A stretch of DNA of 64,000 nucleotides. Source: Mytilus galloprovincialis (taxonomy: Eukaryota > Mollusca > Bivalvia > Mytilida > Mytilidae). Numbering within the stretch: the first letter of the stretch is position 1; each line of letters starts with the position of its first letter. A program made the translations under genes and the position numbers. A model generated the notes under the pieces. The model had not been told where the DNA came from. It saw nothing but the letters and a program-made list of their open reading frames with translations, and searched no databases. Below are positions 8,987 to 55,675 of the stretch, piece after piece. Where the stretch lies: assembly GCF_965363235.1 (NCBI RefSeq), contig NC_134842.1, positions 6,475,112 through 6,539,111 of the forward strand. Reading direction: 5' to 3'.

Positions 8987-9030
8987 GCATCACTGAAGAG
9001 ACATGTATTGTCGAAATGCGCATCTGGTGC
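8987..9030 (+). ncRNA. Type I hammerhead ribozyme, subfamily R1 (canonical)
   Basis: Stem I is GCATCA (8987-8992) with TGGTGC (9025-9030), 6 bp including one G-U. The core is CTGAAGA (8993-8999), which fits CUGANGA. Stem II is GACA/TGTC (9000-9003 with 9009-9012), and the second core element is GAAA (9013-9016). Stem III is A-U and U-A closed by a GCGC loop. The predicted cut is after the AUC triplet at 9024. The very short stem III is typical of hammerheads in animal retrozymes and Penelope elements. I see this directly in the sequence; activity is inferred. Confidence 0.85.
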
Positions 9031-9337
9031 AGAAAAAATGGTACCGTTAATGTTATTACTACCACTGGGTTGATGCCTCTGCTGGTGGACTGTTAGTCCC
9101 CGAGGATATCACCAGCTCAGTAGCAAGTACTCCGGTCCTGGCATGAAAAAACGGATTTTTTTGTGTTATTAAATTTGCTGTTTCAAAATGTTAAAAATTA
9201 TTATAAATTAAGGAATGTATCTCCCTCATGCAAAGCTCTGATTACTTTCACGGATTTGACTATATTTTTTTGGAACTTTTGGATTATAGCTCTTGATCTT
9301 TTATATAAGGTTTGGATTTTACATATTTTAGCCACGA

Positions 9338-9385
9338 GCATCACTGAAGATCGAAACATGTATTGTCGAAATGCGCATCTGGTGC
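9338..9385 (+). ncRNA. Hammerhead ribozyme, R1 unit 2, altered stem II
   Basis: Stem I, core CTGAAGA, GAAA and stem III match unit 1, but the stem II 5' strand is replaced by a longer insertion (tcgaaaca in place of gaca), so its closing pair is lost. It is probably weak or inactive. Predicted cut at 9379. Confidence 0.6.
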
Positions 9386-9691
9386 AGAAAAATTGGTACC
9401 GTTACTGTTATTACTACCACTGGGTCGATGCCTCTGCTAGTGGACTGTTAGTCCCCGAGGGTATCACCAGCTCAGTAGCAAGTACTCCGGTCCTGGCATG
9501 CAAAAACGGATGTTTTGTGTTATTAAATTTGCTGTTTCAAAATGTTAAAAATTATTATAAATTAAGGAATGTATCTCCCTCATGCAAAGCTCTGATTCCT
9601 TTCACGGATTTGGCTATATTTTTTTGGAACTTTTGGATTATAGCTCTTCATCTTTTATATAAGGTTTGGATTTTACATATTTTGGCCACGA

Positions 9692-9739
9692 GCATCACTG
9701 AAGATCGAAACATGTATTGTCGAAATGCGCATCTGGTGC
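9692..9739 (+). ncRNA. Hammerhead ribozyme, R1 unit 3, altered stem II
   Basis: Same change in stem II as unit 2, which shows that these two units share a more recent common ancestor within the array. The rest of the core is intact. Predicted cut at 9733. Confidence 0.6.
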
Positions 9740-10051
9740 AGAAAAATTGGTACCGTTAATGTTATTACTACATTTGTACCACTGTGTCGATGCCTCTGCT
9801 AGTGGACTGTTAGTCCCCGAGGGTATCACCAGCACAGTAGCCAGTACTCCGGTACTGGCATAAAAATACGGATTTTTTTGTGTTATTAAATTTGCTGTTA
9901 CAAAATGTTAAAAATTATTACAAATTAAGGAATGTATCTCTCTCGTGCAAAACTCTGATTCCTGTCACTGATTTGGCTATACTTTTTGGAACTTTTGGAT
10001 TATAACTCTTCCTCTTTTATATAAGCTTTGGTTTTTACATATTTTGGCCAC

Positions 10052-10097
10052 GAGCATCACTGAATAGACAAGTTTTGTCGAAATGCGCATCCGTTGC
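10052..10097 (+). ncRNA. Hammerhead relic, R1 unit 4
   Basis: Core reads CTGAATA, so the required GA is changed, while stem II GACA/TGTC and GAAA remain. The 3' strand of stem I is also altered. It is probably inactive. Confidence 0.6.
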
Positions 10098-10125
10098 AGA
10101 AACATTGGTACCGTTAATGTTATTA

Positions 10126-11116: not shown

Positions 11117-12390
11117 TCTTTTTAATATGTACCATTACTGATTACATGTAGCATACTGTAAAATGACTTTTGCGATTAAAAAGGTTGTTATAACACGGCG
11201 GATGCCACATTTTGAGTAGGAACTGCTCACTCTTTCTTAAGCACTTCAGTCCTATCCAAGTTTTTAGTGGGTTTCTGATTACTCATCTTTAGTTTCGTTG
11301 TTTGTTCTCGTTGGTTGTGGTTTGTCTTTTTCTATTCTAGCCACATTTTTGTCCTTTGATTTTAATTTTCGATTTTTTATTAAGTACCCTAACGTCAGTG
11401 TTGATTACGTAATGATCAAAATTTAGACTTCGTTTATGAATTCACTTAATGTACGCCAAGAATCAAGCAAATTCACGTGCAATAAAACCAGCATAAAGTA
11501 AACCACATTGCGACCAGACATTCTGTTTGGAATAGACAGCTGTTCGATTTAGATTGTTTTATTTCACAAACAAATAATGAAATGTATAGATAAATTATAA
11601 ATTCAATATAAGAAGTATTATATTTTGAATAAACAGTTTCAAGGTTGTAAGTTTTCTATAATACGTAATATTTTTGGAAATCTTACATAAGTTTTCCTTT
11701 AAATCTATTTAATTCTGTTTTGACATAAAACTGAGTCATTATAAATTATATTATAAAAAAATTTAAGGAAGATAAACGACGATCACTGAGGAGACTAAAA
11801 GTAGATGACATTGACCCACACGAAAATTATAACAACAATGCAAATTTTCAAAGAAAAACATCTATCATTTGTCTAGAAAAGATGACATTTCAAACAAAAC
11901 AGGCTATAAAATAGACCCCTCAAAGCAAAAGACGCAACCAGAAAACCTCCAGCCTTCTGTAGCAATCAATTTCAGCCTTTTAGAACAAGTACGTCACAAG
12001 TACGATCTTTCTAGTATAAACGTAATACATGTGGATTTTTCAAACATTTAAAGTCATTTAATGTTGGGTATTTAAAATATAGATATTACTTATTAGATGA
12101 AAACATATCAAACTGAGGAGCTATAACTTTTGTAGATTTTATCAAAACATGTTTTATTTTCAATACAACATGTACAATGACACATTTTTGGATTTAATCA
12201 ATCATGATAGCTGCAAACATAATTTAAAAACAATTTGTTTTAAACAACGGGTTGATATCGTTTTTTTAAACTCTATAGATTTTCGTCAAGGGTGTCCTTT
12301 ATTTTGTTTATTATTTATTTGTTTAGTAGAAATTTTATCATTAAGACTAAGAAGCAAGCAATAAATACATCAAGGGATAAAGATTAAGGT
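11115..12390 (+). repeat. Duplicated block, copy I (partner 41,226-46,060)
   Basis: Collinear with 41,226-41,384 and 45,063-46,060, for example the gattaaaaaggttgtt block near 11,175 and acgtaatacatgtgg near 12,020. Here the gattttaatttt site at about 11,357-11,372 is uninterrupted, whereas the partner carries a LINE there. The open frame 11,869-12,051 is not preserved in the partner, so it is not a gene. Confidence 0.8.
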
Positions 12391-18429: not shown

Positions 18430-19165
18430 TGTATGCTTCTATATGGATTTCAGGTTCCCAATTTTGAACTTTCCATTTCTTTGAACATTCCAACAACAGC
18501 TGCATACGGAGTTATATCTCTTAGTTGATAGGCTATTCCAATATAAAAAAAGAAGATGTGGTATGATTGCCAATGAAACAACTATCCACAAAAGACCAAA
18601 ATGACACAGACATTAACAACTATAGATCACCGTACGGCCTTCAACAATGAGCAAAGTCCATACCACATAGTCAGCTATAATAGGCCCCAAAAAGACAATG
18701 TAAAACAATTCAAACAAGACAACTAACGGCCTTATTTATGTAAAATATGAACTATCATAACTTCCTTGATAGGGGTGCTGCTCAAAAGGATGCCATCAAA
18801 CCTACATTCCAAGGGTTGAAGTTTAAATGATCCATTTGTATATTTAACGGATGGCATCACGATTTGGTTTACCGTTATGGAATTTACGTTTCACAGATAA
18901 CAATGGATCTGTTCCAATTGTCGTATCCCGTCCCTTTTTCCCCGAATGTGACCTACCAAATTAAACTTATCACCAAGTTGGTACAACATTAGCAACACAA
19001 CGAATGCCACATGTGGAGCAGGATCTGTTTACCATTCCGGAGCATTTGAGATCACCTATAGTTTTTGGTTGCGTTCGTATTACTCAGTCTTAAGTTTTTT
19101 ATGTTGTGTATTTTGTGTACTGTTGTAAGTCGGTTTGTCTTTATTTTTTTTTAGCATTGACGTAG
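18430..19165 (+). mobile_element. Penelope-related RT 3' fragment, family T, right half of head-to-head pair
   Basis: A plus-strand copy of the same RT thumb and 3' UTR as 17,830-18,420, so the two form an imperfect inverted repeat. It contains traces of the HHDLVDR box and the marker gccacatgtggagcagg at 19,007. It is interrupted by the 213-bp family S insertion at 18,540-18,752. Not coding. Confidence 0.65.
18540..18752 (-). mobile_element. 213-bp family S insertion with empty site in the duplicate
   Basis: Reverse orientation, starting aatataaaaaaagaagatg and ending aaaatatgaac. The duplicate at about 49,650-49,670 runs through without it, which fixes both ends. The start is truncated relative to the longer copy at 20,375-20,712. 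About 11 bp of target differ between the filled and empty sites, so no clean target duplication can be named. Confidence 0.75.
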
Positions 19166-20374
19166 TCAGACGTCCATTTGAAAGTCTTAACTATACATTT
19201 TTTTAATGATCTAATATTTGGTTAATATTATGAAATATCCCGACCTGTACGTATGTATGAAGTCACAATTCAGTATTCAATTGTATAAAACTAACGCACG
19301 TTACCTTTGAAATCATATGATTTGTAACTTTATGTAACTTGTTTTTCAGTATGTCTTGCTACAATTTGCTGTGCGACTGAAATTATTTATCTTGCAGAAA
19401 TGCTGATAAAACAAATACTAACCGGTTTTGAGAGGCAGTTGTTCTTTTTCAATGTACTAATATCTAAATTTGTAAAGCTTTATATGTGTTTCGTCCACTT
19501 TTATTTACATATATTCCTATAATCGAACATGCTTCCTGTTTTAAGTATAAGTGAACCAACACCATAGCTTATGATGTTCATATTTAGGAATATGCTTCTT
19601 ATGAATACTTACAAAGAAGATGTTTCTTCCATCAAAGATAAAGCTGTGTGGAAATACTTTCAATGACATATTTTGTTATTCATTGGAAACAATGAGGTAA
19701 ACTTCTTCATAAAGTACACTATTACACATGTGTATCTTATTGATATATTTACCACGTCTTCAAATCTTAAAATCTTGAAATAGTGCAAAAACATTTTTTT
19801 GGATATCGGATGACATATCTCCTTAGAACAGAAGTGTTTTGTTTGTCTAACATTTTCGACAAGTCTGTTTAAAATATGAACTATGAAGGTGTCGATTTTC
19901 CAATCTGTCTTTTAGTTTTACGACAACAACTGGCTTCTCGCAGGGTGGTTGTCCTAAGCGAAACATTTGTCTTATATCATTTCATATTAAAACACCGTGA
20001 AAATTTAAACATAGCCTTGTATGTTAACATTTCTATCCCGTGATTGATTACTTTATATTATTTACAGTGTAATTCTATTTTTTTAAGTCTACTTCATTGT
20101 GGTGTTACAATTAATTTTGTAGATGTGCATTTAATCAATTTTTAAAATTGAAAATGAAGAAAACTTCATGTGGTGGCTCGTTTTCAATTGACTATGACCA
20201 AAAAGTTCTTTAAACTTCGAATGATCACTGAAACAGAGATATTCTAATAGAACCAAGTTAAAGCCATAATTTTCATCAGAAGTACCAAGTCGTGAATATA
20301 ATAATTGTGTCGCTTTAATTGATAATGTTTTATTTTGCCAGTTTTATGAGCTACCCCTTTTTGAATTAGCCAGG

Positions 20375-24290: not shown

Positions 24291-25040
24291 AGCTAATAAA
24301 ACTTTTATATAGACTTATTAAGAAGGGATATATTTCCGATACAGGCCATTAAAGATTTCATATTTTGCCTTTAATATTGATTCACTTATAGGGTTTTTGC
24401 ATCGGAAAAATACACATTTATTCTGAAACCAGTTGTTAGCATGACACGGGTTATGTTCTTCTCATATAATTCATGATGGTACAATACTAAACCCCTGACA
24501 GTAGGAATTGTGCCTGATATTCATTTGATGAAGACATAAGCTTTAGTTGAGTTCTGGAGCTTGCATGTCAGTTACTGCTAGTAGTCTGTTGTTATCTATG
24601 TATTATTGTCATTTTGCTTATTTTCTTTTGTTTCATATTCTGACATCGGACTCGGACTTCTCTTAAATTAAGTTTTACTATGCGTATTGTAATGAATTTT
24701 TCTTCATTCGGCTAGAGGTATATATAGAGCGAGGGTTGAGATCTCCAAAACATGTTTAATCCTGCCGTAATTGTGTGCCTGTCCCAAGTCAGGCGCCTTT
24801 GTTAGTCTTGTAGGATTTTTAATTTTAGTTTCTTGTGTATAAATTGGAGTTTAGTATGACGTCAATTATCACTGAACTAATATACATATTTTTAGGAGCC
24901 AGCTAAAGCACGCCTCCGGATGCGGGAGCTACTCGCTACATTGTCGACCCATTGGTGGCCTTCGGCTGTTGTCTGCTATATGGTCGGGGTTGTTTTCGCT
25001 TTGACACAATCCCCATTTCCATTCTCAATTTCATTGGCTT
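24291..25040 (+). mobile_element. 3' end of a permuted Penelope-like element (second copy)
   Basis: Aligns on the opposite strand to 51,720-52,450. It starts within the C-terminal coding part (RLIKKGY at about 24,313, compare RLIKRGY in the longer copy) and then carries the same 3' UTR. Recognisable UTR blocks are gacacgggttatgttcttctc, gcatgtcagttactgctag, gtccgag-like text and cattggtggccttcggctgt. It is a 5'-truncated copy of about 750 bp. Having two copies fixes the family 3' end at the ccatttccattctcaattt region. Confidence 0.75.
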
Positions 25041-25433: not shown

Positions 25434-27125
25434 TTAAAGATATTCATAAATAGATATTTTACTTCCACGACAGTTACAGATAACCAGAATGTTCAATTGT
25501 TTGTTGAATTCAATACCATATGGACACCAAATGCCATCTCTAGTTGTTAGAAGTTCCTTGCACTTTTTACCGTCACGACGTATCCATACAATATTGTTAG
25601 AATCCGACCCTGCTACTAGAATGTTGTTTCCCCTGTCCACTGTTATTCCATATGGACCCTTTAATTTTTCACTCCTAAATGTAAACATTAGTTTCCCGGT
25701 TGAATCGAGTGCTATGACACTATTGTCTTTGGTTAATGAACAGAATATTCGACATTCATCGTCAACAGTGAGGAGTAACGTTTGGTTCAATTGCATTAAT
25801 TTATTTGGACAATTGTATGCAATGTTATTTCCGGTTGAATCAATTATACGTATGCCTGTAGAATTGCATCCTACAACAATACTGTTGTCGGAATATTTTG
25901 CAATACCACTACATTTCTCAACAGTATATACGTGTTTTATTAAGTTCATGGTGTGTTTATCATATATTTCTACGCTGTCATTTTCGGAATCAGTAACAGC
26001 AAAAATGTCCTGGGTGATTTTTGTTATTCCAAAATATTTTGACTGCATTTTCACATTACGTTCTAAAATGCCCTCTTTGTTGAATTCTACGAGGCAGTCG
26101 TGTTTTTCATCAACTGCTATTATCTGACCATTTTGAAATATAGTAAAATTACGTATTAATCCATCCTGTGGGTCTGTTTCTTGAAATGCTATATCCATTC
26201 GTAAATGCAATCTTGGAACATCGTGTATACCATGCAGTTTTGGTTGTAAAATCAATTGAACAGGTGTCAATTGAGGGATGTCAATATTAAGTGTTGTTTG
26301 AAAGAGATTTATTTTCACCTCTTTCAGTTGATGCAATAATGATTCAAAAGCAACTTCGTCAGAAATCCTAATATCTACACAGTTCGAGTCAATATGTTTT
26401 ATGACAAGGTCTTGATTGCGAAGTGCATTTTCAATTTCAAATATACTGAGAAAGATTTTATCCTCTGAGCATTTGGTTGAAATATGATCGAGATCTTCTT
26501 TATGTTTTAAAAGTTCTGTTTCGTGCATATGAAGTTCGTTGAGCTCCCTCGTCAGGTTTTCGGTTACAAAATGAAATAACAGTTCGTGTTGGTGGGTGAT
26601 ATCGCTAACCCATTGATTTACCTCACTTATGAATGATTTTAACTTAATTTCAAACTTAATCTTTTCTATCAATAAACCCTCAATATTTGCGGTTTTGGTC
26701 CGTAATAGATTTTTTATCGAGTCATATTTCGAGCCAATTCTATTTCTCAAATCTGTAAACACGTGAGATAATCTTACATTCCCCGTAACATCTTTTAATT
26801 TACGAAAATCGCATAACCTGTGTGACTCAATCAGACATGAAAAACAGAATGCTTCACAATGAAAAGGGCAGTAATATTCCTTTAGTTTGTCAGAATGTGC
26901 ATTGCATGTCATTGCACGGAACATTAAATCAAATGGAAACTCAAAGATAGATTCAGAAGGAATTATACTGTGATTTGCAAACAGTGGAAACTTGGAATGA
27001 TGATCTGCACATGGTTTGCAAAAATATAGGTTGCAATCGAGACAAAGTGTGATGGGTGCATCAGAAGGTTTTGATATTTTCAATTCTATTTTACAAGCAT
27101 CGCATACGATTACTTTTTCCGCCAT
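25434..27125 (-). CDS. TRIM-like protein: two B-boxes, coiled coil, NHL-like beta-propeller
   Basis: 563 residues from MAEKVIVCDACK. A longer frame starts 15 codons earlier, but those codons are a pyrimidine tract ending in the acceptor tttcttttcag one base before this ATG, so they are intron and the start is here. B-box 1 uses C8, C11, C28, C31, C36, C39, H43 and H52. B-box 2 uses C74, H77, C86, C94, C97, H102 and C105. A coiled coil spans about 130-300, and a propeller of NHL type spans about 325-563 (repeats such as GPYGITVDRGNNILVAGSD). There is no RING, so it is a TRIM-like scaffold and probably not an E3 ligase by itself. Such genes are strongly expanded in bivalves, where roles in innate immunity are proposed. 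The reading frame is intact with a full domain set. Its partner or ligand is unknown. Confidence 0.9.
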   Translation of the reverse strand: MAEKVIVCDACKIELKISKPSDAPITLCLDCNLYFCKPCADHHSKFPLFANHSIIPSESIFEFPFDLMFRAMTCNAHSDKLKEYYCPFHCEAFCFSCLIESHRLCDFRKLKDVTGNVRLSHVFTDLRNRIGSKYDSIKNLLRTKTANIEGLLIEKIKFEIKLKSFISEVNQWVSDITHQHELLFHFVTENLTRELNELHMHETELLKHKEDLDHISTKCSEDKIFLSIFEIENALRNQDLVIKHIDSNCVDIRISDEVAFESLLHQLKEVKINLFQTTLNIDIPQLTPVQLILQPKLHGIHDVPRLHLRMDIAFQETDPQDGLIRNFTIFQNGQIIAVDEKHDCLVEFNKEGILERNVKMQSKYFGITKITQDIFAVTDSENDSVEIYDKHTMNLIKHVYTVEKCSGIAKYSDNSIVVGCNSTGIRIIDSTGNNIAYNCPNKLMQLNQTLLLTVDDECRIFCSLTKDNSVIALDSTGKLMFTFRSEKLKGPYGITVDRGNNILVAGSDSNNIVWIRRDGKKCKELLTTRDGIWCPYGIEFNKQLNILVICNCRGSKISIYEYL

Positions 27126-27126
27126 T

Positions 27127-27128: not shown

Positions 27129-27630
27129 GAAAAGAAAAAAAGGAAAGCATATATATTTGCATGAAAGCATAATAAAAACTTACAAATTAAACATCAGTAA
27201 CGACATTATCAATATGAAACTGTAAACGTCAAAATGAAACGTAACGAAACTTTAGTTAAATATTCATTACGAACGAAAACAATGACAGATTCACAACAAG
27301 CAAACACGTGTGTGTGTCGAACAAACAAAACACAAACTAAATACCATCAGGCATAGATGACTTGAACATTACTTCTTCAGATGCAACAGTTTCTCTAGAG
27401 CTTATTAGACGTTGACTTTGGGCAAACCAATTTAGAGACAACTGTGTTGTATTTGAAGCTTTGTGGATGTCCATCGGTAGTTTTACCGTCGTTAATTTAG
27501 TTTACCTGGCCACGCATCAGTTTGATAGTTACCTTTCGTCTAGACTACGATAACGCTTTCTGATTGGTACAAGTGCACCATTATTGCCCATTTGTATGCG
27601 TTTCACAATTATTCGAAATACTAAGGATTT
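27129..27630. other. Upstream flank (5' UTR intron and possible promoter side) of the B-box/propeller gene
   Basis: AT-rich with no coding signal. The first exon and promoter of the minus-strand gene should lie here or further right, but neither TATA nor donor can be chosen with confidence. Confidence 0.4.
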
Positions 27631-27745
27631 TCTTACTCCAGGCATAGATTACCATAGCCATATTTGGCACAACGTTTTTAGAATTGTTGGTTCTCAGTGC
27701 TCTTCAAATTTGTACTTGATTGGCTTTCTAACTTTGTGGATCTGA

Positions 27746-27789
27746 TTGTCACTGATGAGTCTTATAAAGACGAAACGCGAGTCTGGCAA
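27746..27789 (+). ncRNA. Type I hammerhead ribozyme, subfamily R2 (canonical)
   Basis: Stem I is TTGTCA (27,746-27,751) with TGGCAA (27,784-27,789). The core is CTGATGA (27,752-27,758). Stem II is GTC/GAC (27,759-27,761 with 27,769-27,771), followed by GAAA (27,772-27,775). Stem III is A-U and C-G with loop GCGA. The cut is predicted after GUC at 27,783. Compared with the copy at 28,547, two stem I pairs are replaced on both sides, which keeps pairing. Confidence 0.85.
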
Positions 27790-28049
27790 ATCAAAAGATA
27801 CCTTTGATAACTATTTACACTACTGGGTCGCTGTTTTGTCCCCGAGGGTATTACTACCCCAGTAGTCAGCACTTTGGTGTTGACGTGAATTTTAATAAAA
27901 TAACTGTTTGCAAAAGTATGACCTATTCGAAAAACTATGGACTTTCTTATCCTAGTCACATATTTATTTATCCGTATTTGGCACAATTTTTAATACTCAG
28001 TGATCTTCAATTTTGTATTTATTCTGGCTTTGTAACTATTTCGATCTGA

Positions 28050-28093
28050 GCGTCAATGGTGAGTTTCATGCAGACGAAACACGCGTCTGGCGT
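28050..28093 (+). ncRNA. Hammerhead relic, R2 unit 2
   Basis: Stem I strands and the GAAAC-GTC part remain, but the first core reads CAATGGTGA instead of CTGATGA. Probably inactive. Confidence 0.6.
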
Positions 28094-28429
28094 ATCTAAA
28101 GATAAGCCTTATAACTATTTACAAATAATTTGCAAGACCGATCATCAGGTATAATTTTTTTTATATTGTACCGATTTCTAAATTCTTCATAAGCATAAAA
28201 CTTTTTTTTTTTGTGTACACGTTTTAAGTAACGATCTATTTTAGAATTTGACAAAACGTAATTCAGGATTGAAAAAAAATGCTTACAAATGATGTTTTAA
28301 GATTCATGAATCGACAAATTTAGATTTTTCCGAGATTCTTTTATGATTGCTACTTGCGCTTTCATTAATATGGTTATATTTATAAATTAACTGTTTACAA
28401 AATTTAAAATTTTTGAAAAAAACTAAGCC

Positions 28430-28632
28430 TTTCTACCTCAGGCATAGATTACCTTAGCTGTATTTGGTATAACTTTTAGGAATTTTGGTCCTTAATGCTC
28501 TTCAACTTCGTACTTTATTTGGCCTTTTTCACTTTTTTGGATTCAAGCGTCACTGATGAGTCATTTGTAGACGAAACTCGCGTCTGGCGTAGATACAAAA
28601 TGTAGTCCTGGTATCTATGATGAGTTTATTTC
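28430..28632 (+). mobile_element. Solitary R2 hammerhead module
   Basis: A single half-unit begins at caggcatagattacc and ends near gatgagtttatt, with a hammerhead in its centre. No joining half is next to it, like the solitary modules at 49,858 and 55,508. Non-coding. Confidence 0.65.
28547..28590 (+). ncRNA. Type I hammerhead ribozyme, subfamily R2 (canonical)
   Basis: Stem I is GCGTCA (28,547-28,552) with TGGCGT (28,585-28,590). The core is CTGATGA (28,553-28,559). Stem II is GTC/GAC (28,560-28,562 with 28,570-28,572), followed by GAAA (28,573-28,576). Stem III is A-U and C-G with loop TCGC. The cut is predicted after GUC at 28,584. Confidence 0.85.
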
Positions 28633-38875: not shown

Positions 38876-39538
38876 ATGGATACTGCATATTTCCCTTGCT
38901 TCCCGTGTAATAGTGAAGGAAGTTCAAAGCCAAAAACAGACGCTTTTGCCGTTTGCCTAGAATGTAGTGAATACTTTTGCCATATTTGTAAAGACATGCA
39001 TTCTAAATTTCCGCAATTGAAGAATCACAGTATTATTCCGATATCACATATTTCTTCTTTCCCTCGTGACTTGATGAATAGACTGCACAAATGCGAATCG
39101 CATCATACGGAAATAGCCGAATATTATTGTTCCTTTCATTGTAATGCTTTCTGTTTTGTTTGTTTAATGGCGTTACACAGAAATTGTAGTTTCACAAAGT
39201 TATCTGATGTTTCAAGAGGTGTTAAACTATCTACTAGGTTCAATGAAATGGAGAAACGATTAGCTGTGAAATGTGAATCCGCGAAGGATTTGTTTAACAA
39301 TAAATCAGAAAACCTAAATGATATTCTCCGTCAAAAGACAAAGCTCGAAACTGAGTTGTCTTCGTGTGTTTGTCGTATCAATAGTTATATGAACGAATTA
39401 ATTGAAAATGTAAAAAAAGTATTTGAAAAAGAAATGCAAAGGCTTCAAACAGATTTGGAACAAATAAGAATGCAATCAAAAGATCAAAACAGGTTAAGAA
39501 AAATTGGTAAAAGACTTAAATGGACATGTTATATTTAG
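38876..39538 (+). CDS. Shortened TRIM-like B-box protein, 220 residues
   Basis: Starts MDTAYFPCFPCN. B-box 1 is complete (C8, C11, C27, C30, C35, C38, H42, H51). A second B-box (CESHHTEIAEYYCSFHC, then CFVCLMALHRNC) and the start of a coiled coil follow. It is closely related over its whole length to the N-terminal half of the gene at 25,434-27,125 (shared HSKFP, NHSIIP, YYC-FHC-AFCF). It stops in the coiled coil and no propeller is found in the roughly 300 bp that follow, where a reverse transcriptase relic begins. Unlike the other three genes, it has no clear acceptor before the ATG. It may be a truncated, possibly nonfunctional paralogue, or a short functional form. Its strand is opposite to its relative. 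Confidence 0.65.
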   Translation: MDTAYFPCFPCNSEGSSKPKTDAFAVCLECSEYFCHICKDMHSKFPQLKNHSIIPISHISSFPRDLMNRLHKCESHHTEIAEYYCSFHCNAFCFVCLMALHRNCSFTKLSDVSRGVKLSTRFNEMEKRLAVKCESAKDLFNNKSENLNDILRQKTKLETELSSCVCRINSYMNELIENVKKVFEKEMQRLQTDLEQIRMQSKDQNRLRKIGKRLKWTCYI

Positions 39539-41384: not shown

Positions 41385-44300
41385 TTTTTTTTTTTTTTAT
41401 TCAACAACAGTATTGCTCGCTGTTAACAATTACTCCACTGACACAGCTATCTCAGTGAAGGTCCCTGTTTCATTAGTACCAGAAGTTCAGGGATTCTTCA
41501 GGTAGATAAACTGCATATTGTTAGTCGTTTACAAAATATTATAAATATTACATCAATATAGATAAAAAATGCTATTCTAATTATATTAAAGTATTTATAT
41601 TATATAGTCTTATTTTCGGAAAATTTTCATAGTTCATCCGAGTTTGGGATGACTTCTATCAGTTTCCATGTGTTTCCGGATAACGGTTTTTTCAATCAAT
41701 ATCGAAAAAGATTGTAATTATCTTTGATCTACATCATCATTCAGGTAAGACAGCTATAATTTGAAAGAATAATAGTCGTACGGTAATCAAAGAACAACTA
41801 TGCTGTTTTTTGGGTTTGTTTTTTTTTGTTATGTATAATGCCTCGTACCAGATTATAATATAAATATTGTAATTAATGTCTATCAAGCATCTTAAATAAA
41901 TACAAAATTAGATAATAAATTAATTAATACACAATGATAACTTTACCAACCATGTTATCAGTTCAAACAATTCAAATACACTTAAATAATTTTCCTTATA
42001 TTCCTTTTCTTTCATGGTTAAAAAAATTGTTTTGTAGAACGAGCCTATTTCTAAACTCAGTTTTAAAAACAGAAAATACATTTATCTTCTTTGTTCTAAA
42101 CTCTGACAAATAGTGTATTTTGTGAATTGAAAATATAATAACTGTAAGAAAAAAATTAATATCATAATATTCTATATCATTTATTTTGTAACCCCAAATC
42201 AAATTTTTTAGTGTTAAAATGTGTTTTCCAAGTTTCACTTTTTCTAACAGATTAAATATGTCTTTCCAAAATTTATCAAGAAAGTGGCATGTAATAAAAA
42301 AGTGTTCATAATCTTCTGTAATATTACAGTGATTACAGTTTGAGTTTTGGCATATTTTCCATTGTTTTAATAAAACTTTGTTTGGAAGAATAAAATGTAA
42401 TAGTTTCCATCTGAAAATTTATAATTTATTTTCTTTCAAATAATTATGAACAAATTTAAGTATGTTTTGAGCTTTATTTTCTATGTTTTCAAAATTTAGT
42501 AGTCTCTTCCATTTGTAAAAGCCAACTGGTATTTCTTTATCTTGTTCTAATAGTATTTTGTAAATTTTACTTGTTTCTAATTTATTTATATTTTGTTTAA
42601 AGTTATCTTTGTCATAAATATACACAACATTATCTGTTAGTACATTAGTTGTTCTTGAACATTTTTCAGCTAATATTTTAACCCATTCTTTTGGTATAGC
42701 TTTTTTTAATTTTAAAAATTCAGTAATCCAGTTTGTCTTTTTATTAAGCTTTTGTCTAATAAATCTTTCTGTTATATTTCCAGATTCATCTATGATATCA
42801 TTTATGTATATTATGTTGCTATCTATCCAGTTTTAGAATAATAATATTTTTTCTTGAAATTTTATCCACTGATTTCCCCAAATAACTTGTTGGCGGATTA
42901 GTCTGTAGATTTTGGGGTATTTATTATTATTATTTTTGTTCTTGATCCAAACTTTGATTATATCAAGATAAAACTCTGGTATCTTTTTTATATCTGGTAT
43001 TGAATTTATACTATCCAGATTCATTTGCAATATAAGAAGATTATTTCCAAATTTGTTTAAATAAAATTTTGGTATTACCGTCCAGTTTAAGAATTGCTTT
43101 GCATTTAATCTTTTAATCCAACCTATTTTTATTGTTTCTATGTATTTCTCTAAATTAATCATTTTTAATCCCCCATTTAATTTGTCGTAACTTAGTACGG
43201 AGCGTTTAACTTTTTCTGTTTTGTTATTCCATAAAAATTCATATATCATTTTTTTAAACTGGTTTAAATACTCTTTATCTATGGTTGAGACAGATGCTAA
43301 AAATGTAATATTAGGAATAATTAATGATTTAGTAACTGTTATCCTTCCTATCATGGTTAAGTTTCTCTTTTTCCAATTAAGAATAATTTTTGCTGATTTT
43401 TCTAAAAGTTTTTCAGCATTTAATCTTTGACACTCTTTTTTATTATGACCAAAATATATACCTAGGCTTTTTACAGGTATATTTGTCCAGTTAATATTTT
43501 CTTGTTTATCTTTGCAGTTTTTTTGCTTCCCAAGCCAAACACCCTCAGTTTTAGCTCTGTTTAATTTCAAACCTGACAATGTTCCAAATGTTTCAATCAT
43601 ATTAAGTGCTTTTGAAATGTCTTGTTTTGTTCTAAGAAAAAGAGTGGTATCATCTGCTAGTTGACTAATTTTTAATGTGTGAGTTTTGCCATCAAGTTTA
43701 ATTTCAAAGCCTTTGAGGTCATGATCTTGTCTGATCCTACATGCTAAAATTTCAACAGCAATTACAAAAATTATCGCACTGCATTGGCACCCTTGCCTAA
43801 TCTCACGAAAAATGCTTATAGGTTTTGAAATCCAACCATTGTTTATAACTGAGCTTTTAATATCAGTATATAGAACTTTAATCCATTTCAACATTGAACT
43901 TTTGAATCCAATTTTTTTTAAAGCTAAAAACATGAAATCCCACTCTAAAGAATCAAAAGCTTTAGAGAAATCTAAGAAAAGAAGAGCTCCCTCTATGTTG
44001 ATTTTTTCTGCAAAATCAATGATATCTTGAATTTGTCTAATGTTATATCCAATATATCTATTTTTTACATACCCATTTTGATCCCCATGAATAATTTGTG
44101 GTAATATTTTACTAATTCTTTGTGCTAATGACTGAGCTACAATCTTTGTATCTACATTTAATAATGTTATTGGCCTATAGTTATCTAAAGATAGTGGGTC
44201 ATTTTTTTTTATGTAGAAGGGAATAACTCCTATTTTTTGTAAATTAGTTAACTCCCCTTTTTCATATGAAAAATTGAATGTATTAACAGCAAATTCTTTC

Positions 44301-45048
44301 AGATCTTCCCAAAATATCTTGTAAAACTCTACACTTAAACCATCAATGCCTGGGGCTTTATTGAGTTTCATTTTAAATAGAGATTCTGTGCATTCCTGGA
44401 TACTTAATAGACCTTCCATACTTTCACTTTCTTTATTGGTTAATTTATGATCAATTTCTGTATTCATAATGTAATCTTTAATATAAGTTATGTTAGGGTT
44501 TGAACTTTTGTATATATCTTGATAAAATTCTCTTTCAAGTTGCAATATTTTTGTAGGATCTCTGTGTATCTCCCCATCTTTATCTTTAAGGGCTGTTATT
44601 GTTTTTTTTGTTTGCCTAGATTTTTCTAATCCTAAAAAGAATTTTGTATTTTTTCCCCTTCTTCCACCCACTTAATTCTAGATCTAATTTGTGCCCCTTT
44701 AGTTTTCGCTTCATATAAATTACTAAGTTTGTTTTCTAATTTATTGATTTCATCATTGAAATAGGCAATAACATCTTCAAATTTATACATTCATTTAATT
44801 TTTTAAGTTTATTTTCTAAAATGTTTACTTCTTTTACATTGTTTTGTGCTTTCCTTTTACAGAATGCTATAGTATAGTCTCGCACCTCTGTTTTAAAGAG
44901 ATCCCATTGAAGCCCAACGTCGTTGGTAAGTAATACTTTACATTCATACTGTTTTGTAAGTTTTTTAATTATGTTTTGATACTCATTATTTTCTAAAACA
45001 CTATTATTTATTTTAAAATATCCTTTTCCTTTTTGTTGTGATCTACAG
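41385..45048 (-). mobile_element. L1-type LINE, 5' truncated, with poly(A) tail and 14-bp target duplication
   Basis: Minus-strand element of about 3.7 kb. Its poly(A) tail appears as a T run at 41,381-41,398. The target duplication tctattttaatttt occurs at 41,371-41,384 and 45,049-45,062. The duplicate block at about 11,355-11,372 shows the unoccupied site. It encodes a reverse transcriptase (42,833-44,671), then a Cys/His zf-RVT-like C-terminus (about 42,000-42,420: CQNSNCNHC, EDYEHFFITCHFLDKFW). The endonuclease and ORF1 are missing, consistent with 5' truncation during target-primed reverse transcription. Confidence 0.88.
42833..44671 (-). CDS. LINE reverse transcriptase (L1 superfamily), partial
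   Basis: 612-residue open part of a larger polyprotein. The motifs are in L1 order: KAPGIDGLSVEFYKIFW, NYRPITLLNVDTKIVAQSLA, GALLFLDFSKAFDSLEW (first catalytic Asp), REIRQGCQCSAIIFVIAVE, and LADDTTLFL (catalytic Asp pair; many relatives read FADD). Upstream in another frame lies IKWVEEGEK, so a one-base change in an A run near 44,655 separates it from the expected EGEKNTKFF. Downstream, the C-terminal region continues in other frames (42,419-42,625 and 41,996-42,420). The listed start is only the first Met of the open part. The element copy is therefore nonfunctional but fairly young. Confidence 0.85.
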   Translation of the reverse strand: MGGRRGKNTKFFLGLEKSRQTKKTITALKDKDGEIHRDPTKILQLEREFYQDIYKSSNPNITYIKDYIMNTEIDHKLTNKESESMEGLLSIQECTESLFKMKLNKAPGIDGLSVEFYKIFWEDLKEFAVNTFNFSYEKGELTNLQKIGVIPFYIKKNDPLSLDNYRPITLLNVDTKIVAQSLAQRISKILPQIIHGDQNGYVKNRYIGYNIRQIQDIIDFAEKINIEGALLFLDFSKAFDSLEWDFMFLALKKIGFKSSMLKWIKVLYTDIKSSVINNGWISKPISIFREIRQGCQCSAIIFVIAVEILACRIRQDHDLKGFEIKLDGKTHTLKISQLADDTTLFLRTKQDISKALNMIETFGTLSGLKLNRAKTEGVWLGKQKNCKDKQENINWTNIPVKSLGIYFGHNKKECQRLNAEKLLEKSAKIILNWKKRNLTMIGRITVTKSLIIPNITFLASVSTIDKEYLNQFKKMIYEFLWNNKTEKVKRSVLSYDKLNGGLKMINLEKYIETIKIGWIKRLNAKQFLNWTVIPKFYLNKFGNNLLILQMNLDSINSIPDIKKIPEFYLDIIKVWIKNKNNNNKYPKIYRLIRQQVIWGNQWIKFQEKILLF

Positions 45049-46034
45049 TCTATTTTAATTTTAGATTTTTTTTAACTTCAGTCCTAATTACGGCATGATC
45101 GACAGTAAGTCTTCTTTTATGAATTCCCCTAATGTGCGCCAAGTAACAAGTTAATAAACGTGAAATTAAACCAGCATAAACTAAACTACTGTGCGACCAG
45201 ACATTCTGTTAGGAACATACAGCTGTTCGATTTAGAATGGTTTATTTCACAAACAAAAAATGAAGTGTATGGATAAATTATATATTCAATACAAGAAGAA
45301 TTATATTTTGAATAAACAGTTTCAAGAGTGTTAGTATTTTATAATACGTAATATTTTGGGAAATCTTACATAAGTTTTCCTTTCAATCTATTTAATTCTG
45401 TTTTGACATAAAACTGAGTCATTATAAATCATATTATTAAGAATGTTAGGAAGATAAACAACAAATACTGAGGAGAAGAAAATAAGATCACATTGACCCA
45501 CACGAAAATTATAACAACAACGCAAATTTTCAAAACAATTCTATCATTTGTCTAGTAAAGTATGATATTTCAAACAAAACTGGCTATAAAATTGACCCTC
45601 AAAGTTAAAGACACAAACAGTAAACCATCAGCCTTCTGTAGCAATCATTTCCACCTTCTGGAACAAGTAATTGACAGGTACGGTAACGATCTTTCTAGTA
45701 TAAACGTAATACATGTGGATTTTTCAAACATTTAAAGTTATTTAATGTTGGGTATTCAAAATATGAGTATTACTTATTAGGTTAAAACATATCCAATTGA
45801 GGAGCTATATTTTTTGTAGATTTTATACAATGAAACATTTTAGGATTTAGTCAATCATGTTAGCTGCAAACATATTATAGTAACAAACAATTTTGTTTTA
45901 AACAACGTGTAGGTTTTTAACTCTATACATGTAGTTATTCGTCAAGGGTGTCGTTTATTTTGTTTATTATTTGTTTTATTAGTAGAAGTTTTATCATTAA
46001 CATGATTAAGACTAAAAAGCAGTAAATACATCAA

Positions 46035-46349: not shown

Positions 46350-46750
46350 AACGAACTATGATATAACAATGGCCATTTTCCTGACTTGGTACAGGACATT
46401 TTTAAAGAAAAAAATGTTGGGTTGATCCTGGTTTTGGGGCATGCCAAACCTCGCACTTTGATGGGATTGTTAAATATAACATTAAAATGAAAACATAATA
46501 CTTCAGGACTACAATATAAATAAATAGGAGAACGTATTAGGCAAGGAAACACATAATTAATAGATAACAAAAGGCATCAGGTTTAAAATTCAATACGTCA
46601 AAAACGCGCCCCGTCCAAACAAGACTTACCAGTGACGCCCAGATATAAAAGTTCGAAAGTCAAAAAAAGGTACAAAGTTGTACAGCTCTGACGATCATAA
46701 GTTGAAAAAGGTTGTGCCAAATACGGCTAGGGTTTTCTGCTTGTGATAAG
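46350..46750 (-). repeat. Family G-like and hammerhead-derived repeat, subfamily R3
   Basis: 46,375-46,480 carries tgacttggtacagg and gggttgatcctggtttt (family G-like). About 46,560-46,745, read on the minus strand, is a module homologous to R2: it starts with agccgtatttggcacaac, passes a decayed hammerhead and ends near ttgttatctatt. Confidence 0.55.
46594..46640 (-). ncRNA. Hammerhead relic, subfamily R3
   Basis: Minus strand: GGGCGTCA, then a core reading CTGGTAA, stem II GTC/GAC kept, then GGGGC where GAAAC is expected. It is clearly derived from the hammerhead module but inactive by sequence. Confidence 0.5.
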
Positions 46751-46984
46751 AAAATTTTTATTATTTAGAACAATTTATGCTATTGCAAACAATAAATTTT
46801 ATTAAATGAATATAAAAGATTTACATGATAAAACTGAAGTCTTCACTAATTACAGAAAACAAAACCCGAATACATAAAGAACTCACCGTTTTGAATTTCT
46901 TTGGAGTTTGGTATTTGTGTGTTTTTTTCACTTTTGGATATAAACTCAAAGCATGAAATTACCAATATCTTTTCAAAGCTTTTC

Positions 46985-49535: not shown

Positions 49536-49857
49536 GTAATGTTTGTATGCTTTTATATGGATTTCACCTTTCCAATTTTGAACTTTCCATTTCTTTGATG
49601 CATCATTCCAACAACGCCTGCATACGGAGTTATATCTCCAAGTTGATAGGATATTCCAGGCTTTTTTCCTATCATGACTTCCTTGACAGGGGGTGCTGCT
49701 CAAATGATACCATTAACCCAACATTTGAAGGAGTGAAGTGGAAATGATCCATTTCTAGATTTATTGGATGGCTTCACGAGTTTGTTGACCGTTATGGAAA
49801 TGAGGTTTCACAGATGACAATGGATCTGTCCCAATTTTCTTATTTCGTCCTTTTCCC

Positions 49858-50043
49858 AGGAATAGATTACCTTAGCCGTATTTGCACAACCTTTTTGAAT
49901 TTTGGGTCCTCAATGCTCTTCAACTTTGTATTTGTTTGGCTTAATTACTTTTTTTATCTGAGCGTCACTGATGAGTCTTATGTAGAAGAAACGCGCGTCT
50001 GGTGTATTAAATTACAATCCTTGTACCTTTGATAACTATTTCA
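49858..50043 (+). mobile_element. Solitary R2 hammerhead module with empty site in copy I
   Basis: About 186 bp from aggaatagattaccttagcc to gataactatttca, absent at 18,938-18,942, where cctttttccccgaatg runs through. It contains a hammerhead (49,962-50,005) and has no joining half, so the half-unit alone was inserted. Confidence 0.8.
49962..50005 (+). ncRNA. Type I hammerhead ribozyme, R2, near-canonical
   Basis: Stem I is GCGTCA/TGGTGT, the core is CTGATGA, then GAAA, with stem III closing at GUC. The stem II closing pair is changed (GTC with GAA), so activity may be reduced. Confidence 0.7.
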
Positions 50044-51591: not shown

Positions 51592-52360
51592 GTCGGTTTT
51601 TTTTTCTATTTTAGCCATGACGTAGTCAGACATTGTTTACATTTGAAAGTCTTAACTATACATTTTTTTAATGATCTAACATGGTTTATATTATGAAATA
51701 TCCCGACTTTTACGTATAAAATAAAATTGAGAAAGGAAATGGTGAATATGTCAAAGCGACAACCACCCGACCATAGAGCAAACAACAGCCGAAGGCAACC
51801 AATGGGTCTTCAATGTAGCGAGAATTCCCGCACCCGTAGGTGTCCTTCAGCTGGCCCCTAAAATATGCATAATAGTACAGTGATAATGGACGTCATACTA
51901 AACTCCGAATTATACACAAGAAACTAAAATTTAAAATCATACAAGACTAACAAAGGCCAGAGGCTCCTGACTTGGGACAGGCGCAAAATTGCGGCGGGGT
52001 TAAACATGTTTATGAGATCTCAACCCTCCCCCTATACCTCTAGCCAATGTAGAAAAGTAAAACAATAACAATACGCACATTAAAATTCAGTTCAAGAGAA
52101 GTCCGAGTCTGATGTCAAAAGATGTAACAAAAGAAAATAAATAAAATGACAATAATACATAAATAACAACAGACTACTAGCAGTTAACTGACATGCCAGC
52201 TCCAGACCTCAATTAAACTGATTGAAAGATTATGTCTTCATCATATGAATATCAGGTACAATCCCTCCCGTTAGGGGTTTAGTATCATACTATCATAAAA
52301 TATATGAGAAGAACATAACCCGTGTCATGCCAACAACTGTTTTTTTAGAAATAAATGTGT

Positions 52361-53668
52361 TTAGTTCCGATGCAAAGACCCTATCAGTGAATCAATGTTA
52401 AAGCCAAAATATGCAATCTTTAATGACCTGACAACAGTATCGTAACTATATCCCCTTTTAATAAGTCTATTTAAAGGTTTTGTTAGTTTCTGAGGAGAAT
52501 ACTGACATTTTTGTGCTTTATAAAGAATATTTCCATAAAATTTTGGATGTGAAATACCTGAACGTATAAGATGTCTGCATGTTGAGTTATATTTACGAAT
52601 TATTTCCTTATACCGGTGATAAAATTTAGTAAATGTTTTGACCAGTTTGTGATATCGAAAACCCTGGTGTAATAATTTTTCAGTAATACATAAATTTCTC
52701 TCGCTAAAATCTAATACATTGTTACATACACGAGCGAATCGTACAAGTTGAGATATATAAACACCATAAGATGGTGACAAGGGAACGTCACCATCTAAAA
52801 ATGGATAATTAACAATAGGAAATGAAAAATCATCTCTTTTATCATAAATTTTTGTATTAAGCTTCCCGTTTATGATATAGATATCAAGATCGAGGAAAGG
52901 GCAGTGGTCATTGTTATCATTAGCTTTATTTAAAGTAAGTTCTACAGGATAAATTTCTTTAGTACACATACTGAAGTCGTCATTATTTAGAGCCAATATA
53001 TCATCCAAATATCTAAAAGTATTGTTAAATTTTTGTATCAAATGTTGTTTTGATGGGTCTTTGCTAATTTTAGTCATAAATTGTAACTCATAACAATACA
53101 AAAACAGGTCCGCAATAAGTGGTGCACAGTTAGTCCCCATTGGAATTCCAATAACTTGACGATATACGGAATCTCCAAAGCGAACAAAAATGTTATCAAG
53201 TAAAAATTCAAGTGCATAAATAGTATCAAAGCATGTCCAATTGACATAGTTCTTTTGTTTATTGCTACTAAAAAATGATCTAAAAGAGTTTGAACATATG
53301 TACTCGCATTCCGACTTTTTAAATGCCCAGTTAATTAGGGATGTGAATTTTTTCTTAATAAGAATATGAGGCAAAGTGGTATATAGGGTAGAAAAATCAA
53401 AACTTTGAACAGATTCAAAATCACCAATATATGCATGCAATTTATCAAGTACTTCCAACGAGTTTTTGACACTCCAAAAGTAATTAATTCCACTATTTTC
53501 AAAGGCCTTATTTGAACAATTTATTATCAGGTTTTTTATTGTACCAAGTGTACTAGTAAGTAAAACAGACAATTTAGTAGTTGAACAATGGCTGGAAGAT
53601 GAAATAAATCTATATTTGTAAGGTTTTTTGTGCAGCTTCGGAAGCCAGTACATAGTTGGGACTTTCAT
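52361..53668 (-). CDS. Permuted Penelope-like element: reverse transcriptase
   Basis: 435 residues with the RT motifs in order: YWLPKLHKKPYKYRFISSS, SFDFSTLYTTLPH (first catalytic Asp), IPMGTNCAPLIADLFLYCYE, and TFRYLDDILAL (catalytic Asp pair as YLDD). A thumb follows (PFLDGDVPLSPSYGVYISQL, RFARVCNNVLDF, LLHQGFRYHKL). The PKLHK box and thumb are those of Penelope-like enzymes, unlike LINE or LTR RTs. The C-terminus RLIKRGYSYDTVV is found again at 24,313. The decayed family T copies in this window have a related thumb. The listed start is only the first Met after the preceding fragment. Confidence 0.85.
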   Translation of the reverse strand: MKVPTMYWLPKLHKKPYKYRFISSSSHCSTTKLSVLLTSTLGTIKNLIINCSNKAFENSGINYFWSVKNSLEVLDKLHAYIGDFESVQSFDFSTLYTTLPHILIKKKFTSLINWAFKKSECEYICSNSFRSFFSSNKQKNYVNWTCFDTIYALEFLLDNIFVRFGDSVYRQVIGIPMGTNCAPLIADLFLYCYELQFMTKISKDPSKQHLIQKFNNTFRYLDDILALNNDDFSMCTKEIYPVELTLNKANDNNDHCPFLDLDIYIINGKLNTKIYDKRDDFSFPIVNYPFLDGDVPLSPSYGVYISQLVRFARVCNNVLDFSERNLCITEKLLHQGFRYHKLVKTFTKFYHRYKEIIRKYNSTCRHLIRSGISHPKFYGNILYKAQKCQYSPQKLTKPLNRLIKRGYSYDTVVRSLKIAYFGFNIDSLIGSLHRN

Positions 53669-53803
53669 TGTGTTTGGTTCTGCTTGTAAAGAAGTAGCTA
53701 AAAGTTTATGTTTGTTACAGATGTCGTTTTCTGAAAATGAAGTCAGTTGGAATGTTGGTGAATTCGTGATTTCCTTTTGCAGAACCTCTATATAAAATTT
53801 ACG

Positions 53804-54990
53804 TCAAACAATAATGATATTATTAGCAGCTTTATCAGCCGGGACAAAAACAAATTCCTTGGCTAGTTCTGTTAGTTTATTTTTGATACGCGAAATAGGG
53901 TTTTTATAGTTTTTGTTGAGGGTAAAATGTTCTTTAAAATGTTGTATTCGAATATCAACTATCTTCATTACTGAATTAAAAAAAGAGTCCAAAGATTTTT
54001 TGTCAGCTTTTTCCCGTTTTACCCATTTCAAACAGTAGGCGCGGAGTGAGTCGTTGATGATATTACGACACTCATTCCAGTTAACAGTTGACGGGGGACG
54101 ATATTTAGGTCCTTTACTGAGGAATGATTTTAACTCTCGGTCGCGAACGATGTTAAGGTCTCCTGTTATAACATGGGAAATTGGTCCATAGGTGTATTCT
54201 GAATTACTGCAATTACACGACATAGGTGTATTTTCAGTGACATTTACATCTTTACACAATTGGCTATAATTAAACACATATTTTCGGGTAGATTTCTTGT
54301 AAATATAACAAATGAGAGGGAGTTCAGTATTATCAAAATATCCAGGAATTTTGTATTTAACGGAATGGTCGTTAAAAATACCGGCAATATTTACAAAATC
54401 AAAACCTTTATTGACATACTTTATTTTAATAAAATGTTTTTTATGATCTTCAGGGCGATCAATTTTTGGAAACAGTTTAGAATAACAATATGCCATTATA
54501 ATTTGGACAATTTCATACTTAGGACTGTAATATGAAATTGTGTTGCAATCCTCTAAAATTTTATTTAATTTATTTATAGGTAAAGAACAAAGCTTGGTTA
54601 ACAGATAATGTCTGCCGTTGTTTTTTGAAATGGAAATTAGGTCCGAAATATTTGTATGGTTGGTCCGAAATTTTCTTTGATTGCGATTTTTTCTGCGTCC
54701 ATGAGAACGATTTTTACGAACAGTTTTAGAAACTATATCCAAAATGTTAACATAATCGGTTCTTGATATATTCCCAATTCCCATGATATTATCATTAAGA
54801 CCGAGAGGGTAGACTGTCTGTAATTTTTTAATCCAATTTAATTCATTTATTTTTCGTGATCGTACAAACTTGGAATGAGATTCACCAGGCTGCTTATTTA
54901 CTACTTCTAAAGGTTGAACTGTTAAATATTTAATAGGATGACTGTGCTTCTTAAGATGTTGATAAATGATACTTTTGAATTTATTGGGTC
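53804..54990 (-). CDS. Permuted Penelope-like element: end of GIY-YIG nuclease plus linker
   Basis: The frame is open from the truncation point at 54,990, upstream of the Met at 54,784. Residues encoded at about 54,770-54,990 include HLKKHSHPIKYLTVQPLE and INELNWIKKLQTVYPLGLND, which match the C-terminal part of GIY-YIG nucleases of this clade; the catalytic GIY-YIG strands themselves are lost. The linker holds a CNCSN motif, ISHVITGDLNIV and KGPKYRPPSTVNW. It ends with FVFVPADKAANNIIIV, the start of the RT fingers. The family-specific linker supports assignment to the same element as the RT downstream. Confidence 0.75.
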
Positions 54991-55507
54991 TGAAGTCACA
55001 ATTCAGTTTTCAATTGTATAAAACTAACGTACGTTACCTTTGAAATCATATGATTTGTAACTTTATTTAACTTTATGTAACTTGTTTTTCAGTATGTTTT
55101 GCTACAATTTACTGTGTGACTGAAATTATTTATCTTGCCGAAATGCTGAGGAAAAAAATTACTAACTAGATTGTTGTTCTTTTTCACAGTACTTATACCT
55201 AAATTTGTAAAGCTTTATATGTGTTTCATCCACATCGATTTACATATATTCCTATAATCGAACATGCTTCCTGTTTTAAGTATTGGTTAACCAACACTGT
55301 AAAACTCTCAATGACAGTTTACTTTTTATTGGAAAGAATAAGGTACACTTCTTCATAAAGTGCACTATTACACATGTGTATCTTATTGATATATTAACCA
55401 CGTCTTCAAATCTTAAAATAGTGCAAACAAAATTTTTGGATATCGGATGACATATCTCCTTCGAACAGAAGTGTTCCGATTGTCTAAAATTTTCGACGAG
55501 TCTGTTT

Positions 55508-55675
55508 AATAAAATTAACCGTACCAATTTTCTTGCACCAGATGCGCATTTCGACAATATATGTCTCTTCAGTGATGCTCGTGGCCAAAATATTTGAAAT
55601 CCAAAGCTTATATAAAAGATGAAGAGCTATAATCCAAAAGGTCTAAAAAGTATAGCCAAATCCGTGAATGGAATC
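55508..55675 (-). mobile_element. Solitary R1 hammerhead module with empty site in copy I
   Basis: About 168 bp, absent at 19,871-19,873 of copy I (ctgtttaaaatatgaac). It corresponds to the second half of an R1 unit of the 8.7-10.1 kb array, without the gatgcctctgctggtgg half. An aata at both edges may be a short target duplication. Confidence 0.78.
55535..55578 (-). ncRNA. Type I hammerhead ribozyme, subfamily R1 (canonical)
   Basis: Minus strand: stem I GCATCA (55,578-55,573) with TGGTGC (55,540-55,535), core CTGAAGA (55,572-55,566), stem II GACA/TGTC, GAAA, and stem III with loop GCGC. The cut is predicted after AUC at 55,541. All core residues and stems match the 8,987-9,030 copy. Confidence 0.85.

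What the first reader, a model, noticed from the sequence alone, without database searches (positions are those of the whole stretch)
8987..55578. Family of hammerhead ribozymes with compensated stem changes
Four copies (8,987 +, 27,746 +, 28,547 +, 55,535 -) have the full type I core CUGANGA...GAAA with NUH cleavage triplets. Differences are compensated. In stem I, GCATCA/TGGTGC, GCGTCA/TGGCGT and TTGTCA/TGGCAA all pair. In stem III, U-A in R1 is C-G in R2. Stem II is GACA/TGTC in R1 and GTC/GAC in R2. Paired changes in non-coding repeats indicate selection for the RNA fold or descent from active ribozymes. Short-stem-III hammerheads are established in animal retrozymes and Penelope elements.
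Basis: partly seen in the sequence, partly recalled or inferred. Interest (0 to 1): 0.9.

Follow-up and report, generated by a model that had tools for sequence, protein, structure and literature searches.

The report
Animal retrozymes with hammerhead ribozymes
This stretch of what looks like a bivalve genome holds ten copies, four of them apparently intact, of a small self-cutting RNA that belongs to known parasitic DNA elements called retrozymes, and two of the insertions can be compared with uninterrupted copies of the same site, which hints at how these elements get back into DNA.

Summary
Confirmed and extended. A strict motif-plus-pairing scan finds those four and nothing else; 300 shuffles gave one hit in total. 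A model built from the window's copies finds ten: A1-A4 in a 354-bp tandem array (8714-10125), A5 (55535-), B1-B3 (27746, 28050, 28547), B4 (49962), B5 (46595-). Four of ten are intact. Six of 12 stem pairs show changes on both sides. They sit in two repeat families (A about 354 bp, B about 300 bp) like the published mussel non-LTR retrozymes (PMC7229834: repeats of about 350-390 bp, two hammerhead families, self-cleavage and circRNA shown). So the kind is known; no call names the host. Added here: for two of seven insertions (A5, B4) uninterrupted paralogous sites show clean, 5'-truncated inserts with no duplication seen beyond 0-3 nt. Their 3' ends lie 34 and about 42 nt past the cleavage site, at the unit border next to a hairpin domain; the other five end near there, judged less exactly. 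This suggests, but does not prove, that copying starts at a fixed point on the RNA circle.

The parts
8714..10125 (+). Family A retrozyme array, four units of about 354 bp (A1 8714-9061, A2 9062-9416, A3 9417-9770, A4 9779-10125)
   Evidence: Tandem Repeats Finder period 354, 4.0 copies, 92% matches; BLAST of units
8987..9030 (+). Hammerhead A1, intact; predicted cleavage after 9024
9338..9385 (+). Hammerhead A2, insertion at the base of stem II, probably inactive (inference)
   Evidence: 44.5 bits; not used to build the model
9692..9739 (+). Hammerhead A3, same insertion as A2
   Evidence: 44.5 bits; not used to build the model
10054..10097 (+). Hammerhead A4, core CTGAATA and two stem I mismatches, damaged
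55507..55678 (-). Family A single-unit, 5'-truncated insertion (A5) in a copy of a dispersed repeat; paralogous uninterrupted copy at 19364-20243
55535..55578 (-). Hammerhead A5, intact; predicted cleavage between 55541 and 55540
27600..28125 (+). Family B tandem, one truncated and one full unit (B1, B2)
27746..27789 (+). Hammerhead B1, intact; predicted cleavage after 27783; near-threshold Rfam RF00163 match
28050..28093 (+). Hammerhead B2, two core changes, damaged
28376..28630 (+). Family B copy B3, 5'-truncated; ends approximate (BLAST similarity stops at 28618, the rest by eye)
28547..28590 (+). Hammerhead B3, intact; predicted cleavage after 28584
49850..50043 (+). Family B copy B4, 5'-truncated insertion in a dispersed repeat; paralogous uninterrupted copy at 18752-19136
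49962..50005 (+).
46560..46806 (-). Family B copy B5, old and damaged, ends approximate; hammerhead remnant 46595-46638
57028..57090 (+). Family B 3'-end fragment B6, no full hammerhead; left end by eye
9064..9142 (+). 5' domain of unit A2: helix P1 (9064/9116) and hairpin P2 (9123-9142, two mismatches); counterparts at 8716-8794, 9419-9497, 9781-9859
27822..27884 (+). 5' domain of family B unit B2: P1 27822/27858, P2 27865-27884 with UUUG loop

Best explanation
These are genomic copies of two related families of metazoan non-LTR retrozymes: small non-autonomous retroelements with a type I hammerhead in each unit. Most likely, tandem units are transcribed, the hammerheads cut the RNA into monomers, a host ligase closes them into circles, and a reverse transcriptase of another element copies the circle into new genomic sites. 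Shown here: the motif, its compensated evolution, the tandem unit, 5'-truncated dispersed copies, and the clean insertion of two of them. Inferred from published work on mussel retrozymes: transcription, cleavage, circularisation. Inferred here: copying starts at a roughly fixed unit border beside the P1/P2 domain.
For: Strict scan: 4 hits against 1 in 300 shuffles. Covariation over 8 aligned copies (A2 and A3, which carry an insertion, left out): 94.8% of cells paired, 6 of 12 pairs with both-side changes (6 of 500 shuffles reach this), covariation score 0.512 against 0.249 shuffled (0 of 500) and 0.000-0.220 with slid partners. Tandem array of period 354; units 36-38% GC. PMC7229834 (sections read): mussel retrozyme repeats of about 350-390 bp, about 5000 hammerheads in two families, construct DRtz_Mg353, cleavage about 0.1 per min in vitro, abundant circRNA; stem III of two pairs with a tetraloop described as similar to invertebrate hammerheads. 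A and B units are 49-60% identical overall; between families the hammerhead is 55-75% identical against 44-55% for the rest (A1 and A5 each against B1-B5, 10 comparisons). Uninterrupted paralogous sites for A5 and B4 show clean insertion.
Against: No Rfam gathering hit. Further pair types no better than shuffled (159 of 500). No RNA data: cleavage, circles and expression untested for these copies; loop 1-loop 2 contacts not tested. Six of ten hammerheads are damaged, and in the family A array only the first unit has an intact ribozyme, so this array may not now yield unit circles. Circular folds of one A and one B monomer do not show the hammerhead. PMC7229834 says target duplications, when present, exceed 4 bp; none beyond 0-3 nt is seen at the two resolved sites, and flank matching at the 7 insertions found none above random pairs. 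The host is not identified by any search, and the published mussel sequences could not be compared letter by letter.
Confidence: 0.9

Rival explanations
1. A satellite DNA that spreads at DNA level (unequal crossing-over, extrachromosomal circles) and merely carries a hammerhead.
For: The 354-bp array is head to tail with 92% matches; two of its units share one insertion (A2, A3), which fits local duplication.
Against: Single 5'-truncated units lie inside other repeats (A5, B4) with their 3' ends at the unit border; DNA-level spread does not predict this, reverse transcription does.
Confidence: 0.07
2. The hammerheads belong to Penelope-like elements (pseudo-LTR ribozymes) rather than to retrozymes.
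For: A GIY-YIG frame (6029-6982) flanked by inverted repeats lies in the window, and a frame that I read by eye as reverse transcriptase begins about 500 nt from A5. PLEs carry minimal type I hammerheads (PMC7761336, passages).
Against: A scan that asks only for the core, stem II and 5 of 5 stem I pairs, with 2-13 nt in place of stem III, returns the same four hammerheads, none in the GIY-YIG element. A5 lies in a repeat with an uninterrupted copy elsewhere. The hammerhead units are tandem repeats of about 300-354 bp.
Confidence: 0.02
3. Chance motifs.
For: The bare core CTGANGA occurs 37 times; Rfam gathering search empty.
Against: One hit in 300 shuffles against 4; homologous flanking units with compensated stems.
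Confidence: 0.01

Closest known systems
Non-LTR retrozymes of the mussel Mytilus galloprovincialis (Cervera and de la Pena 2020, PMC7229834, named sections read)
   Same: Type I hammerhead with short stem III, two hammerhead families, repeats near 353-354 bp (family A), low GC
   Different: Family B unit B2 is about 300 bp, below the published 350-390; no target duplication above 3 nt seen at two resolved sites; sequences not compared letter by letter, so identity with the published family is unproven
Hammerheads of axolotl and newt satellite repeats (retrozymes with HHR_Amex1 and HHR_Amex2, PMC7229834)
   Same: Tandem repeats of 330-350 bp with type I hammerhead and very short stem III; Amex2 also has two pairs and a tetraloop
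   Different: Amex1 has a one-pair stem III; the axolotl ones cleave well only as dimers in vitro; vertebrate host
Minimal hammerheads of Penelope-like elements (PMC7761336, passages)
   Same: Type I core
   Different: Those usually lack the variable part of helix III and map, in some cases, to pseudo-LTRs of autonomous elements; here stem III has two pairs and the unit shows no reverse transcriptase

Membership tests
Hammerhead ribozyme type I | CUGANGA, GAAA and NUH with three stems in type I order | tested here: met
   4 of 10 copies fully intact
Hammerhead ribozyme type I | Rfam RF00163 gathering score | tested here: not met
   Best copy 32.5 bits against 34; a library cut-off, not a structural feature
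Hammerhead ribozyme type I | Covariation in stems | tested here: met
   6 of 12 pairs with both-side changes, 6 of 500 shuffles reach this; the measure of further pair types does not exceed shuffles
Hammerhead ribozyme type I | Loop 1-loop 2 tertiary contacts | not tested
   PMC7229834 says mussel hammerheads lack most of the conserved contact nucleotides
Hammerhead ribozyme type I | Self-cleavage | not testable with these tools
   Needs a transcription assay
Metazoan non-LTR retrozyme | Tandem units of 150-450 bp each with a type I hammerhead | tested here: met
   Array of period 354 and B1-B2 tandem; the five other insertions are single units or fragments
Metazoan non-LTR retrozyme | GC below 50% | tested here: met
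   36.4-38.0%
Metazoan non-LTR retrozyme | No LTR, PBS or PPT | not tested
   Not searched for specifically
Metazoan non-LTR retrozyme | Target duplication, when present, larger than 4 bp | tested here: inconclusive
   None beyond 0-3 nt at two resolved sites; the feature is optional in the source paper
Metazoan non-LTR retrozyme | Expression as linear and circular unit-length RNA | not testable with these tools
   No RNA data held
Penelope-like element pseudo-LTR hammerhead | Minimal hammerhead in a pseudo-LTR of a Penelope reverse transcriptase element | tested here: not met
   No hammerhead in the GIY-YIG element; A5, near another frame, is an insertion in a repeat

The most novel reading that the evidence does not exclude
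The retrozyme circle has an origin of reverse transcription. The mobilising enzyme starts copying at a fixed point just upstream of the P1/P2 domain, primes on target DNA, runs round the circle a variable number of times, and inserts the product without target duplication. P1/P2 would be the recognition signal.
Probability: 0.3. Interest if true: 0.65.

Novelty: new member of a known kind. Interest (0 to 1): 0.4.

Why it matters
Animal retrozymes make abundant ribozyme-derived RNA circles, but how those circles return to DNA is open: PMC7229834 leaves the priming step undecided and names Penelope-like elements only as a strong candidate for the enzyme. Insertions compared with uninterrupted copies of the host repeat give direct junctions. 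If the fixed 3' border, the 5' truncation and the lack of target duplication hold genome-wide, they point to target-primed copying of a circle from one origin, and P1/P2 becomes a concrete candidate signal.

Tried and rejected
Rfam gathering search of the window: empty. Own genome: none held. Relatives elsewhere: exact-pattern scans of viral contigs gave 0, 0, 2 and 0 stretches and of genome contigs 0 and 1. The three loci score 19.7, 18.0 and 9.7 bits with the window model (E 0.0022, 0.006, 1.1 in 29 kb) and have no Rfam gathering match. They were picked by an exact hammerhead seed, so these scores are biased; I read them as chance and did not study them further. A protein scan of viral contigs with the frame 52364-53803 found nothing, nor did a search of solved structures. 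Target duplications by longest common word at the 7 insertions: none above random pairs. An outer helix extending stem I looked possible by eye but is no better than shuffled flanks in any of 10 copies: rejected. A minimal-hammerhead scan found only the same four. Folding energy of the 44-48-mers: not informative. Circular folds of one family A and one family B monomer do not show the hammerhead; PMC7229834 notes the same for some mussel circles. Literature: the repeat's letters are in no held paper (three strings); listings for hammerhead with bivalve, mussel, Crassostrea and for retrozyme with bivalve or target site duplication brought one primary paper on mussel retrozymes, PMC7229834. PMC7761336 and PMC10886601 were seen as passages only; the rest as listings. 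PMC4209133, PMC5785218 and a DOI recalled for the Naiad paper are not held. That junction data are unreported is therefore said only of that library, and of PMC7229834's main text without its introduction and supplement.
Full report
Observation. The four reported copies are real and precisely placed. A scan demanding the core, NUH, stem II of at least 3 bp, stem III of at least 2 bp and 5 of 6 stem I pairs finds exactly those four; 300 dinucleotide shuffles gave one hit in total. Rfam gives nothing at gathering score but sub-threshold RF00163 matches for two copies, 32.5 bits (E 0.00033) and 24.1 bits (E 0.21); the other two are not listed.

Full census. A covariance model from eight copies, run without filters over the window, finds ten copies at E 8.3e-10 or better; the next match has E 0.5. 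Eight of the ten built the model, so their scores are circular; A2 and A3 (44.5 bits) were not used. BLAST with five unit queries gives the same copies plus a 3' fragment, B6. Of ten hammerheads four are intact (A1, A5, B1, B3); A2 and A3 carry an insertion in stem II, A4 and B2 have core changes, B4 has lost the first stem II pair, and B5 has four core changes.

Compensation. On eight copies (A2 and A3 left out because of their insertion) 6 of 12 pairs have changes on both sides, 94.8% of cells pair, and slid partners pair at 16-44%. One measure, further pair types, does not exceed shuffles (12 against 11.0; 159 of 500). The changes are mainly between families A and B, so they are few independent events, and related sequences can exceed such shuffles without structure, as the tool states. 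B1 alone carries the two U-A pairs at the end of stem I. I read the selection as acting on source elements.

What carries them. Family A is a head-to-tail array of four units, period 354, plus the dispersed copy A5. Family B is a tandem of a truncated and a full unit (B1, B2) and dispersed copies B3, B4, B5 and fragment B6. Family A copies are 88-97% identical, B copies (B1-B5) 63-77%, A against B 49-60%. Between families the hammerhead is 55-75% identical against 44-55% for the rest (A1 and A5 each against five B copies). I call the units non-coding by inference: stop-to-stop frames of 146 and 211 aa do cross the array and were not scanned.

A second structure. The start of the unit can form a helix P1 (ACUGGG with CCCAGU) followed by P2, a 20-nt hairpin. 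In A4 and B2 P2 has eight pairs and a UNNG loop, and two of its pairs differ on both sides between them; P1 has G-U in A2 and A3, U-A in A4 and G-C in B2 at one position. P2 of A4 and of B2 folds far better than shuffles (z -4.85 and -4.22). Against: A1 breaks P1 at three of six pairs; A1 breaks P2 at one pair and A2 and A3 at two; the A2 region as a whole does not fold better than shuffles (z -0.85), while the B2 region does (z -2.39). Five units were examined; B2 is the only one from family B.

Insertion junctions. The repeats that host A5 and B4 have uninterrupted copies in the same window. For A5, CATATT/TTAAAC is interrupted by a 5'-truncated element ending in TTATTA, 34 nt past the cleavage site, with a 3-nt overlap between element and target at the 3' junction. 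For B4, a C-run is interrupted by an element ending about 42 nt past the site. No duplication beyond 0-3 nt is seen at either. These are diverged paralogous sites, not empty alleles, and they are two of seven insertions. The other five (A array, B1-B2, B3, B5, B6) end near the same border, judged by loss of similarity or by eye: about 34 nt past the site for the A array, 36 for B1-B2, 34-47 for B3, 32-42 for B5; B6 has no hammerhead to measure from. The 5' end is at the unit start in the A array and within the unit in the other six; divergence makes some 5' ends uncertain.

Mechanism. Hammerhead cleavage would leave RNA 3' ends at the cleavage site, not some 34-42 nt further. A fixed border beyond it fits either a circle copied from one starting point or a linear transcript ending there. 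No T-run is shared by the copies at that border (by eye), which leans towards the circle, but this is inference. PMC7229834 shows cleavage and circles for mussel retrozymes and proposes that LINE or Penelope enzymes copy the circle; the parts I read give no junction data beyond the remark on target duplications. Its introduction and supplement were not read.

Host. No call names the species. AT-rich DNA (31% GC), B-box proteins (two scanned, one above Pfam's cut-off) and a unit size close to the mussel construct Mg353 fit a mussel; that the family B sequence recurs in bivalves is my recollection only.

Verdict. Reader supported; kind known; the insertion junctions are the part worth following.

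Noticed in passing
window 52242-55012 (-): Two long frames (53804-55009 and 52361-53803) are in one reading frame split by a single TGA; the upstream boundary is also TGA, the final stop TAA, and a SECIS-like match (30.9 bits, gathering 35, E 0.042) follows at 52242-52306. This may be a selenocysteine-using retroelement; I recall Naiad-type Penelope elements of clams doing this, but no held paper confirmed it. That it is a reverse transcriptase is my reading by eye: Pfam matched neither frame and solved structures did not match the one frame tried.
   Followed up: partly
window 24426-24892 (+): A second copy of the 3' region of that element, with a weaker SECIS-like match (24.9 bits, E 1.8) at 24465-24528.
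   Followed up: no
window 5405-7279: GIY-YIG frame 6029-6982 flanked by (and overlapping by 24 nt) inverted repeats of 144 and 176 nt (97% and 95% complementary), like a Penelope-type remnant.
   Followed up: no
window 41996-45071 (-): LINE-like reverse transcriptase (RVT_1, E 1.8e-32, in the frame 42833-44671) among several short frames; two pieces of 45073-45826 recur within 11390-12142.
   Followed up: no
window 25434-27179, 33023-33850, 38840-39538, 62384-63250: Four B-box-like protein frames by eye; Pfam was run on the first two only (21.1 bits, below, and 33 bits, above the cut-off of 24.1). In all, 10 of 26 listed frames were scanned.
   Followed up: no
window 9338-9385 and 9692-9739: Units A2 and A3 share an insertion that repeats TCGAAA inside stem II, suggesting local duplication of one damaged unit.
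   Followed up: partly
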